A DNA stretch of 46,059 bases from the NCBI GenBank assembly GCA_035516965.1, contig DATIZR010000080.1, positions 1 to 46,059 on the forward strand, in the 5' to 3' direction. The translations under genes and the position numbers were made by a program. Positions 11,285 to 14,393 of the stretch are shown here, piece by piece. Position 1 is the first letter of the stretch; every line of letters begins with the position of its first letter. The notes beneath the pieces are model-generated. The model ran no database searches, was not told where the DNA came from, and saw nothing but the letters and a program-made list of their open reading frames with translations. The DNA comes from Nitrospirota bacterium. GTDB taxonomy: Bacteria > Nitrospirota > UBA9217.

Positions 11285-11728
11285 ATGTCGGAACCGATCG
11301 TACTGCGATGCAAAGCCTGCCGCACGCTCAACCGGGTGCCAGCTGAAAAGCTTTCGTCAAACCCCATCTGCGGCCAGTGCAAAACGCCGCTCGAATTCCC
11401 CCGGCATCCGGTCACCGCCACGGCGGCGACGTTCGACCGCGAGATCTTTGACTGGCCGGGATATGTGCTCGTCGAGTTTTGGGCGAAATGGTGCGGCTAC
11501 TGCCGCATGATCGAGCCGGTCGTGAACGACCTTGCGAGCTGGCGAGCCGGCCGCTTGAAAACGGTCAGGATCGATATTGACCTGGAGCCGGACCTCCAGA
11601 GGCGCTTCATGGTCAAGGCAACGCCGACCTTTATCCTGTTCAAGAACGGGACCCAGGTCGCGCGCATGGACGGCGCGCCCAAGGAAAAAATTGAACTCGT
11701 CCAGTGGGTCGACCAGCTGATGCGGTAG
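11285..11728 (+). CDS. Trx2/TrxC-like thioredoxin with zinc ribbon and WCGYC active site
   Basis: A 147-residue cytoplasmic thiol-disulfide oxidoreductase. The N-terminal 40 residues carry two Cys pairs (C9-x2-C12 and C29-x2-C32) that bind zinc in thioredoxin 2. The thioredoxin fold follows with VLVEFWAKWCGYC (C70, C73) and the cis-proline loop VKATPTFILFKNG. The dipeptide between the active cysteines is Gly-Tyr instead of the usual Gly-Pro, which should raise the redox potential. AGAAGGAG lies 7 bases before the ATG. It is a single plus-strand gene between minus-strand genes and converges on fdhE. Confidence 0.92.
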   Translation: MSEPIVLRCKACRTLNRVPAEKLSSNPICGQCKTPLEFPRHPVTATAATFDREIFDWPGYVLVEFWAKWCGYCRMIEPVVNDLASWRAGRLKTVRIDIDLEPDLQRRFMVKATPTFILFKNGTQVARMDGAPKEKIELVQWVDQLMR

Positions 11729-12642: not shown

Positions 12643-13722
12643 TTACGGTATCTTAGGGTATTCGAAGGGGGACGGCTCTCCGGAAAGGGCCTCAACGAGG
12701 AACGTTTTCAGAGAGCGCTTCTCCTTGTCCGTCAATCTCAGCGGCTTCAGCGCCGTGTTCCCCTTGCCTCCGCCCCTATCGAAAAAATCGATCACCTCGT
12801 CGAGCGACGCGAAGATGCCGTTGTGCATGTAGGGCCCGGTCGCGGCTATGTCAAGCAGCGTCGGCGTGCGGAAGGCCTTCCAGTCCTTCCGGTCCTTCGT
12901 GATGAGGTACCTGCCGGGGTCCTCGGTCAGCGTCCGGTAATCTTCGAAATGATAGACCTTCGCGACAAAGCGCCGGGTGACCGCGATCCGCGGGTCGGAC
13001 TGGTGCTCGGGGTTCTCGGGCACCTGAAGAGCGTGAAACGCGTCGTCCGACAGGCTCACGCCAAAATGACAGTCGATGCATTTCCCTTTCTGTGTGAAGA
13101 TCACCAGGCCTTTTTTCGCTTCATCCGAGAGCGCCTTCTTGTCCCCCTTCAGGAAGCGCTCCAGCGGGGTGTTCCGCGAGATGAGCGTCCGCTCGAATGC
13201 AGCGATTGCCATGGCCATTCGCTCCCGGCTGGGTTCGGCATTGAAGACCTTCCGGAAGGCCTCGACGTACTCCGGGACCGAGCGGATCACCTCCTCGGCG
13301 AAATCGAGGTTCCTGTTCATCTCGAAGGCCGACATCATCGGGAACAGCGCCTGGTCCTCCAGCGTGAGCGCCCTGCCGTCGTGGAACAGGTATTTCTGAA
13401 AGCCCACGTTCAGGAGCGTCGGCGCGTTCCGCCAGTTCCTGGTCGTGGGGTAGCTGAGCGAGATGTCGAGTCCGTCAGTGAAGGCGTGCTCCGGGTCGTG
13501 GCAGGTCACGCAGCTCATGGTCCCGTCACCGGAAAGCCGGCGGTCGAAGAACAGCTTCTTGCCCAGTTCGATCTTTTCCGGCGTCTGGGGGTTCTGCTCT
13601 GGCACCGGAACGGGTGTCATGGGAGCCAAAGCGCCGGCGGAAGCGGCCACGGAAATTGTCATCAACCCAACAAACGCTATTGCCGTCATTAAACGGTATA
13701 ACATGTTCATCATTCTCCGCAT
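12643..13722 (-). CDS. Di-haem cytochrome c peroxidase (CcpA/MauG family)
   Basis: A 359-residue secreted protein: signal peptide MLYRLMTAIAFVGLMTISVA and cleavage near ASAGA. Two CxxCH haem sites are visible: CVTCH in the N-terminal domain (LSGDGTMSCVTCHDPEHAF) and CIDCH in the C-terminal one (GKCIDCHFGVSLSDDAFH). It also has TATGPYMHNGIFASLDEVIDF, whose Met ligates the electron-transferring haem. It reduces H2O2 to water in the periplasm with electrons from small c-type cytochromes. AAGAGGT precedes the ATG at 13722. It lies 83 bases downstream of the selenocysteine DsbA-like gene on the same strand, which may help disulfide or haem handling in the same compartment. Confidence 0.93.
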   Translation of the reverse strand: MRRMMNMLYRLMTAIAFVGLMTISVAASAGALAPMTPVPVPEQNPQTPEKIELGKKLFFDRRLSGDGTMSCVTCHDPEHAFTDGLDISLSYPTTRNWRNAPTLLNVGFQKYLFHDGRALTLEDQALFPMMSAFEMNRNLDFAEEVIRSVPEYVEAFRKVFNAEPSRERMAMAIAAFERTLISRNTPLERFLKGDKKALSDEAKKGLVIFTQKGKCIDCHFGVSLSDDAFHALQVPENPEHQSDPRIAVTRRFVAKVYHFEDYRTLTEDPGRYLITKDRKDWKAFRTPTLLDIAATGPYMHNGIFASLDEVIDFFDRGGGKGNTALKPLRLTDKEKRSLKTFLVEALSGEPSPFEYPKIP

Positions 13723-13805: not shown

Positions 13806-14393
13806 TCAATTCTTTCCCTTCAGTTCCTCGTCGATGAGCTTCTTAAAATACCCGAACGGCCGTTCACCCACGACTTCCCTGCCGTTGATGAAGAAGGTCG
13901 GCGTGTTGTACAGGTCCATCCTGACTGCCAGCGCCTTGTCACGCTCGATCTCGGACGCATGCTTTCGCTTGTCGAGGGAATCAGTGAACTTGACGACGTC
14001 CAGCCCGAGTTCCTTCGCGTATCCGATCAGGCTCGATCGGTCAAGCCTGGGCGAGCGCCTGATCAGGAGGTCATGCATCTCCCAGTACTTCCCCTGGTCC
14101 CGGGCCGCCAGCGACGCCTCCGCCGCGATGTGCGAGTAATCCCGGTACTGGTAGGGATAGTTCTTGATCACGAGCCTTATCCTGCCCTGATAGGTATCCA
14201 TGATCTTCCTGACGGTCGGACCGGCCGCCACGCAGTGCGGTCACTGGAAGTCGATGAACTCGATGATGGTGACGGGAGCGCTGGCCGGACCGAGCGAGGG
14301 GGAGTCCTCGAGCGGTACGTCAAATCGTTTTTCCTGGGCTGCGGCGGTAACCGCGAAAAACGCCACGGCGAGGAACAGTGTGAGCTTTTTCAT
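13806..14393 (-). CDS. Selenocysteine-containing DsbA-family thiol oxidoreductase (UGA at codon 51)
   Basis: Read through the in-frame TGA at 14241-14243, this is one 195-residue protein. Signal peptide MKKLTLFLAVAFFAVTAAA is followed by ASAPVTIIEFIDFQ, then U51-P-H-C54 where relatives have C-P-H-C, a helical insert (YSHIAAEASLAARDQGKYWE), the cis-proline loop NTPTFFING and a short C-terminal helix. Homology is continuous on both sides of the TGA, the frame does not shift, and the codon falls exactly at the nucleophilic Cys, so selenocysteine is far more likely than a nonsense mutation. A SECIS-like hairpin follows the codon. GGAGGT lies 9-10 bases before the ATG at 14393. It acts in the periplasm. 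Automatic callers would split it at 14231 and 14241. Confidence 0.85.
14211..14240 (-). promoter_or_regulatory. Bacterial SECIS-like stem-loop for selenocysteine insertion
   Basis: Counting from the base after UGA: GGCGG at +12 to +16 pairs with CCGUC at +26 to +30 (one G-U), leaving a 9-base loop with GGUC at +19 to +22. The E. coli fdhF element, as I recall it, also carries GGUC at +19 to +22. SelB recognises the loop GGU. Hand-folded only. Confidence 0.7.

What the first reader, a model, noticed from the sequence alone, without database searches (positions are those of the whole stretch)
13806..14393. Selenocysteine DsbA-like protein with a U-P-H-C active site
The sequence shows one frame interrupted by a single TGA exactly at the first active-site cysteine position, with DsbA-family homology continuing in frame on both sides and a signal peptide in front. 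Selenocysteine in place of the nucleophilic Cys is known in thioredoxin-fold proteins of several anaerobes. This would be a periplasmic oxidoreductase next to a di-haem peroxidase and FdhE. Standard gene callers will report two truncated pieces or a pseudogene.
Basis: partly seen in the sequence, partly recalled or inferred. Interest (0 to 1): 0.8.

Follow-up and report, generated by a model that had tools for sequence, protein, structure and literature searches.

The report
Selenocysteine DsbA in formate-dehydrogenase operon
A periplasmic disulfide-handling protein in this Nitrospirota genome uses the rare amino acid selenocysteine in its active site; more than 60 related genomes encode it the same way, always beside a di-haem enzyme and often beside formate dehydrogenase genes, so the apparent stop codon is real recoding and not a broken gene.

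Summary
One frame of 195 codons has a single internal TGA (14243-14241), at the first active-site position (U-P-H-C), with a signal peptide in front and DsbA homology on both sides. The selenocysteine reading passed every test run. The genome has tRNA-Sec, SelA, SelB, a Sec-type SelD and two Sec formate dehydrogenases. All 18 orthologues in relatives and all 68 close orthologues from a genome-wide scan carry TGA there; none carries Cys. The gene occurs only in selB-positive genomes (19/36 versus 0/63). A hairpin with a GGUCC loop starts 18 nt after the UGA, the same spacing as E. coli fdhF. Its codons are invariant at synonymous sites while every other four-fold site varies. New here: one Sec-only clade across Nitrospirota and Desulfobacterota, always followed by a MauG/CCP-type di-haem enzyme, usually near a Tat-exported formate dehydrogenase, FdhE or MoeA. 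The inferred role is redox maturation or protection of periplasmic formate dehydrogenase, or of its di-haem neighbour. DsbA-like selenoproteins are already known, so this is a new member of a known kind with an unreported genomic partnership.

The parts
13806..14393 (-). Sec-DsbA gene, 195 aa, signal peptide residues ~1-19, thioredoxin/DsbA fold, ends in TGA
   Evidence: AlphaFold2 pLDDT 92.3; Foldseek best 3gyk, BdbD 3eu3
14241..14243 (-). in-frame TGA codon 51 = selenocysteine of the U-P-H-C motif
   Evidence: TGA in all orthologues
14210..14230 (-). bacterial SECIS hairpin with one C.A mismatch in the stem, loop 14222-14218 GGUCC starting 18 nt after the UGA
   Evidence: fold; invariant synonymous sites; same spacing and loop as E. 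coli fdhF
12643..13722 (-). MauG/CCP-type di-haem c-type enzyme (two CxxCH), exported; constant downstream partner
   Evidence: next to the Sec-DsbA in 65/68 genome-contig loci, the other 3 at contig ends
11770..12528 (-). FdhE-like formate dehydrogenase accessory protein
   Evidence: PF24860 FdhE_C 6.4e-10; TIGR01562 56.9 bits, below its cut-off; FdhE in 35/68 loci

Best explanation
The gene encodes an exported DsbA-fold thiol-disulfide oxidoreductase whose nucleophile is selenocysteine, inserted at UGA51 by SelB, Sec-tRNA and a SECIS hairpin whose loop starts 18 nt downstream (very strongly supported by sequence; about 0.97). It forms an obligate pair with a MauG/CCP-type di-haem enzyme and sits in a formate-dehydrogenase biogenesis neighbourhood (conserved context: shown). 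Most likely mechanism (inferred, about 0.45): after export the Sec-Cys pair forms or reduces disulfides/selenenylsulfides in the periplasm during maturation or repair of the co-encoded selenium- and molybdopterin-dependent formate dehydrogenase and/or the di-haem enzyme. The di-haem enzyme removes or uses H2O2 that would otherwise inactivate the selenol/metal site, or supplies the oxidising equivalents, since the genome has no DsbB and only a sub-threshold VKOR hit. The confidence given is for the whole statement, weighted to the selenoprotein and operon parts.
For: Sec machinery complete; SelD and two FDHs in the same genome are themselves Sec proteins. TGA conserved in 19/19 close orthologues (window included) of four families in the phylum and in 68/68 close loci of genome contigs. 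Sec-DsbA only in selB+ genomes (19/36 vs 0/63, Fisher p=8e-11). SECIS: third bases of Gly-Pro-Thr after the UGA invariant (19/19, 19/19, 16/16) while all other four-fold columns have entropy 1.24-1.95 bits; 69 distinct sequences, stem 92% paired against 1-71% when slid, with U-A/C-G exchange (Fisher 1.5e-5); UGA+18+GGUC identical to E. coli fdhF; meets the published bSECIS model (PMC13188914). Sec clade monophyletic, SH-aLRT 98. Context: di-haem gene downstream in every locus whose contig extends far enough, FDH catalytic or Fe-S subunit near in 48/68, FdhE in 35/68, MoeA-like gene after FdhE in Thermodesulfovibrio-type genomes; Tat motif on FDH. No DsbB, weak VKOR, two CcdA/DsbD.
Against: No protein-level data. 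The hairpin is not unusually stable against shuffles (58 nt: z = +1.65), 6 of 19 orthologue hairpins miss the -7.5 kcal/mol guideline when folded as 26 nt, and 20 of 69 have a C.A mismatch in the stem. In this particular genome the FDH genes lie on other contigs, so the link to formate dehydrogenase rests on relatives plus FdhE. Neighbourhood is not function: the di-haem enzyme scores below every NCBIfam cut-off, so its activity is unknown.
Confidence: 0.85

Rival explanations
1. Pseudogene or sequencing error: a Cys codon (TGC/TGT) changed to TGA in this genome.
For: Table-11 callers split the gene; draft assembly of 120 contigs.
Against: The same TGA is present in 18 relatives' genomes and 68 loci of a second collection (the two sets partly overlap), with purifying selection on both sides and invariant synonymous sites after it.
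Confidence: 0.01
2. UGA is read as another amino acid (general recoding such as code 4/25, or a Cys-inserting opal suppressor tRNA).
For: Non-standard UGA decoding, including Cys-inserting tRNAs of the selC type, is known in some bacteria (own knowledge).
Against: TGA is the stop of this gene and of 10 of 21 window genes; canonical tRNA-Sec with SelA, SelB and Sec-type SelD; a conserved SECIS; no Cys codon ever substitutes at the site.
Confidence: 0.02
3. Sec-DsbA plus di-haem enzyme works like the mau maturation pair (MauD thiol-disulfide protein + MauG): it matures a separate periplasmic protein by disulfide formation and oxidative side-chain modification, and FDH is only a neighbour.
For: Invariant pairing, overlapping genes in Thermodesulfovibrio-type genomes; best NCBIfam hits of the di-haem enzyme are MauG (223.8 bits) and MbnH (199.6).
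Against: Both hits are far below cut-off (443.9, 362.9); the closest solved structures are classical cytochrome c peroxidases, with MauG much weaker. No substrate gene found; FDH/FdhE/MoeA context points elsewhere.
Confidence: 0.15
4. General periplasmic antioxidant pair: the Sec protein is a thiol peroxidase/reductase and the di-haem enzyme a cytochrome c peroxidase, protecting an anaerobe against O2/H2O2 without any specific client.
For: Di-haem partner most like cytochrome c peroxidases by solved structures; Sec commonly serves peroxide reduction (own knowledge).
Against: DsbA/BdbD fold with insertion domain and TP cis-Pro loop, not a peroxiredoxin; repeated location inside FDH/FdhE/MoeA operons.
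Confidence: 0.25

Closest known systems
DsbA-like selenoprotein form 1 (PF01323, UxxC), Table 1 of PMC13188914; first seen in PMC1088965 (listed under COG2761) and PMC1794560
   Same: DsbA-superfamily fold with Sec replacing the nucleophilic Cys of CxxC, bacterial SECIS, mostly anaerobes
   Different: The Sargasso family is filed under COG2761; by my own knowledge that is the FrnE-type group, which the genome's other gene at C65 (UPFC) resembles more. The window protein is BdbD/Thioredoxin_4-like with UPHC. Operon with di-haem enzyme, FDH and FdhE not mentioned in the passages read. Published member sequences could not be aligned here.
DsbG-like / Rcas_1661 family thioredoxin-like (seleno)lipoprotein NF041057
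   Same: UxxC, related domain (88 bits)
   Different: 88.2 bits against a cut-off of 190: not a member
BdbD of Bacillus subtilis (3eu3) and the uncharacterised thioredoxin-like 3gyk
   Same: Fold (TM ~0.8), CxxC at the same place
   Different: Cys, not Sec; 26-30% identity
E. coli fdhF SECIS
   Same: UGA + 18 nt + GGUC apical loop
   Different: Stem sequence and the encoded peptide

Membership tests
Bacterial selenoprotein | In-frame UGA at a redox-active position with homology on both sides | tested here: met
[quoted passage not shown]
   Window hairpin: loop GGUCC, spacing 18, -10.8 kcal/mol in 26 nt (L031 row), stem with one C.A mismatch; model from PMC13188914. 13 of 19 orthologues meet the energy limit on the 26-nt piece.
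Bacterial selenoprotein | Host has selA, selB, selD and tRNA-Sec | tested here: met
Bacterial selenoprotein | Selenium found in the protein | not testable with these tools
   needs 75Se or mass spectrometry
DsbA superfamily (PF01323/PF13462) | Thioredoxin fold with helical insertion, CxxC/UxxC and cis-Pro loop, exported | tested here: met
   signal peptide read from the sequence
DsbG-like NF041057 (seleno)lipoprotein | Score above the curated cut-off of 190 bits | tested here: not met
   88.2 bits
DsbA-like selenoprotein form 1 (published) | Clusters with the published members | not tested
MauG / MbnH (the neighbour) | Score above NCBIfam cut-off | tested here: not met

The most novel reading that the evidence does not exclude
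A dedicated, Sec-only periplasmic redox module (Sec-DsbA + di-haem enzyme) that matures or protects selenium-dependent, Tat-exported formate dehydrogenase in Nitrospirota and Desulfobacterota: one selenoenzyme looked after by another selenoprotein, with the di-haem enzyme as its redox partner in place of DsbB.
Probability: 0.35. Interest if true: 0.75.

Novelty: new member of a known kind. Interest (0 to 1): 0.5.

Why it matters
Genes like this are split or called broken by annotation pipelines, and no NCBIfam model covers this one. Here an entire orthologous group is Sec-only in two phyla, which is notable among thiol-disulfide selenoproteins, where Cys forms are common. Its constant di-haem partner and the formate dehydrogenase surroundings give a testable role for a class of selenoproteins whose functions are mostly unknown, and cultured carriers exist.

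Tried and rejected
Single-sequence folding of 58 nt starting at the UGA showed no excess stability; comparative evidence was needed. Rfam found nothing in the window. The first translation of the C65 hit was out of frame, redone. One line used a wrong offset for the window TGA; the L031 row of the same call is the correct one. The first notebook checkpoint gives the TGA as 14234-14232, which is wrong: it is 14243-14241. G004 has the di-haem gene but no Sec-DsbA or selB; its contig ends 6 nt beyond the gene, so its missing DsbA says nothing. Pseudogene, assembly error and general UGA reassignment were rejected (see rivals). Paper searches for this operon or for Nitrospirota selenoproteins found nothing relevant.

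Full report
What is there. The gene lies on the minus strand, 14393->13806. With TGA read as U it gives 195 residues: a signal peptide (MKKLTLFLAVAFFAVTAAA), EFIDFQ-U-PHC, a DsbA-type body and the NTPTFFING cis-Pro loop. The internal TGA is 14243-14241; the terminal stop is also a TGA. Table-11 ORF calling breaks the gene in two. Pfam places it in Thioredoxin_4/DSBA. AlphaFold2 gives pLDDT 92 and the nearest folds are 3gyk and BdbD.

Is the TGA selenocysteine? The genome (97.7% complete) has tRNA-Sec with anticodon UCA, SelA, SelB and a SelD that itself carries Sec, plus two formate dehydrogenases with UGA at the catalytic position (HQARIUHS, NQARVUHG). Among 99 related genomes (the window's own included) the 19 best matches, the window gene being one of them and the others 50-74% identical to it, all have exactly one TGA, while most more distant homologues have Cys. 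All 19 TGAs fall in the same alignment column. The gene occurs in 19 of 36 selB-positive genomes and 0 of 63 others (Fisher 8e-11; not corrected for phylogeny). pN/pS is well below 1 on both sides of the TGA.

The SECIS. In all 19 sequences the codons after the UGA include GGT CCG (Gly-Pro), and wherever the next residue is Thr its codon is ACC. No other four-fold degenerate column in the gene is invariant (entropy 1.24-1.95 bits). These letters are the GGUCC loop and 3' stem of a hairpin whose loop starts 18 nt after the UGA, exactly as in E. coli fdhF. Over 69 distinct sequences the four-pair stem is 92% paired, against 1-71% when slid by 1-3 columns, with U-A and C-G exchanging at one pair (Fisher 1.5e-5, not corrected for phylogeny). 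RNAalifold finds the same hairpin. It fits the published bacterial SECIS model (PMC13188914). Weak points: no excess stability in one sequence, a C.A mismatch in 20 of 69, and 6 of 19 short hairpins above -7.5 kcal/mol.

How widespread. A scan of 84,980 species genomes gave 68 close orthologues with Sec (UPHC or UPYC in 67, UAHC in L107) in Nitrospirota and Desulfobacterota, a few binned under other names, including cultured Desulfofustis glycolicus, Desulfopila aestuarii and Thermodesulfovibrio sp. N1; no close orthologue has Cys. Some of these loci are the same genomes as. One of the two search patterns required a Cys codon, which biases the scan towards Cys and not towards Sec. The Sec orthologues form one clade (71 rows in the tree, SH-aLRT 98) and the two other Sec paralogues of this genome that were included lie outside it.

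Context. Directly downstream on the same strand is a CCP_MauG di-haem enzyme with two CxxCH: 65 of 68 loci, the other three ending at a contig edge. In the Thermodesulfovibrio-type genomes the two genes overlap. A formate dehydrogenase catalytic or Fe-S subunit lies within about 5 kb in 48 of 68 loci, FdhE in 35 of 68; the FDH has a Tat motif. In the Thermodesulfovibrio-type genomes a MoeA-like gene follows FdhE. In the window the order is Sec-DsbA, di-haem enzyme, FdhE-like; the FDH genes are on other contigs.

Function (inferred). A Sec-Cys pair in a DsbA fold should make a fast thiol-disulfide catalyst (general knowledge). The genome has no DsbB, a sub-threshold VKOR hit and two CcdA/DsbD proteins, so the recycling partner is open; the obligate di-haem neighbour is the leading candidate. 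The FDH, FdhE and MoeA neighbours make periplasmic formate dehydrogenase the most likely client. None of this has been tested biochemically.

Known or new. DsbA-like selenoproteins with UxxC have been listed since 2005-2006 (PMC1088965, PMC1794560; PMC13188914), so the kind is known. This orthologous group is not NF041057 (88 bits against 190), no NCBIfam model covers it, and I found no description of its operon. Whether some published members belong to it could not be tested here.

Noticed in passing
own genome C65:34785-35354 (L001, minus): Another Sec DsbA-superfamily gene, FrnE-like, motif U-P-F-C, with a hairpin downstream of the TGA.
   Followed up: partly
own genome C30, about 32.0-36.3 kb (L002, L003, L080): Two near-identical tandem genes with a half beta-propeller-like N-terminal part fused to a Sec thioredoxin domain (U-P-Y-C); a separate Sec lineage in the tree.
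   Followed up: partly
own genome C42 and C71 (L017, L018, L025, L026): Two sets of selA+selB; the C71 set is on a 4.9-kb contig and could be a contaminant.
   Followed up: no
G095:C15 (L046, L075): Sec-DsbA and the di-haem enzyme run in one open frame, a fusion or a frameshift, where relatives have overlapping genes.
   Followed up: partly
L123, L126, L127 and L114, L129, L132: SECIS loop variants GGGCC, GGGAC and GGUAC; the first three form their own subclade.
   Followed up: no
window 11285-11728 (+): Divergent thioredoxin-2 type gene with Zn ribbon (WCGYC) beside the FdhE-like gene.
   Followed up: no
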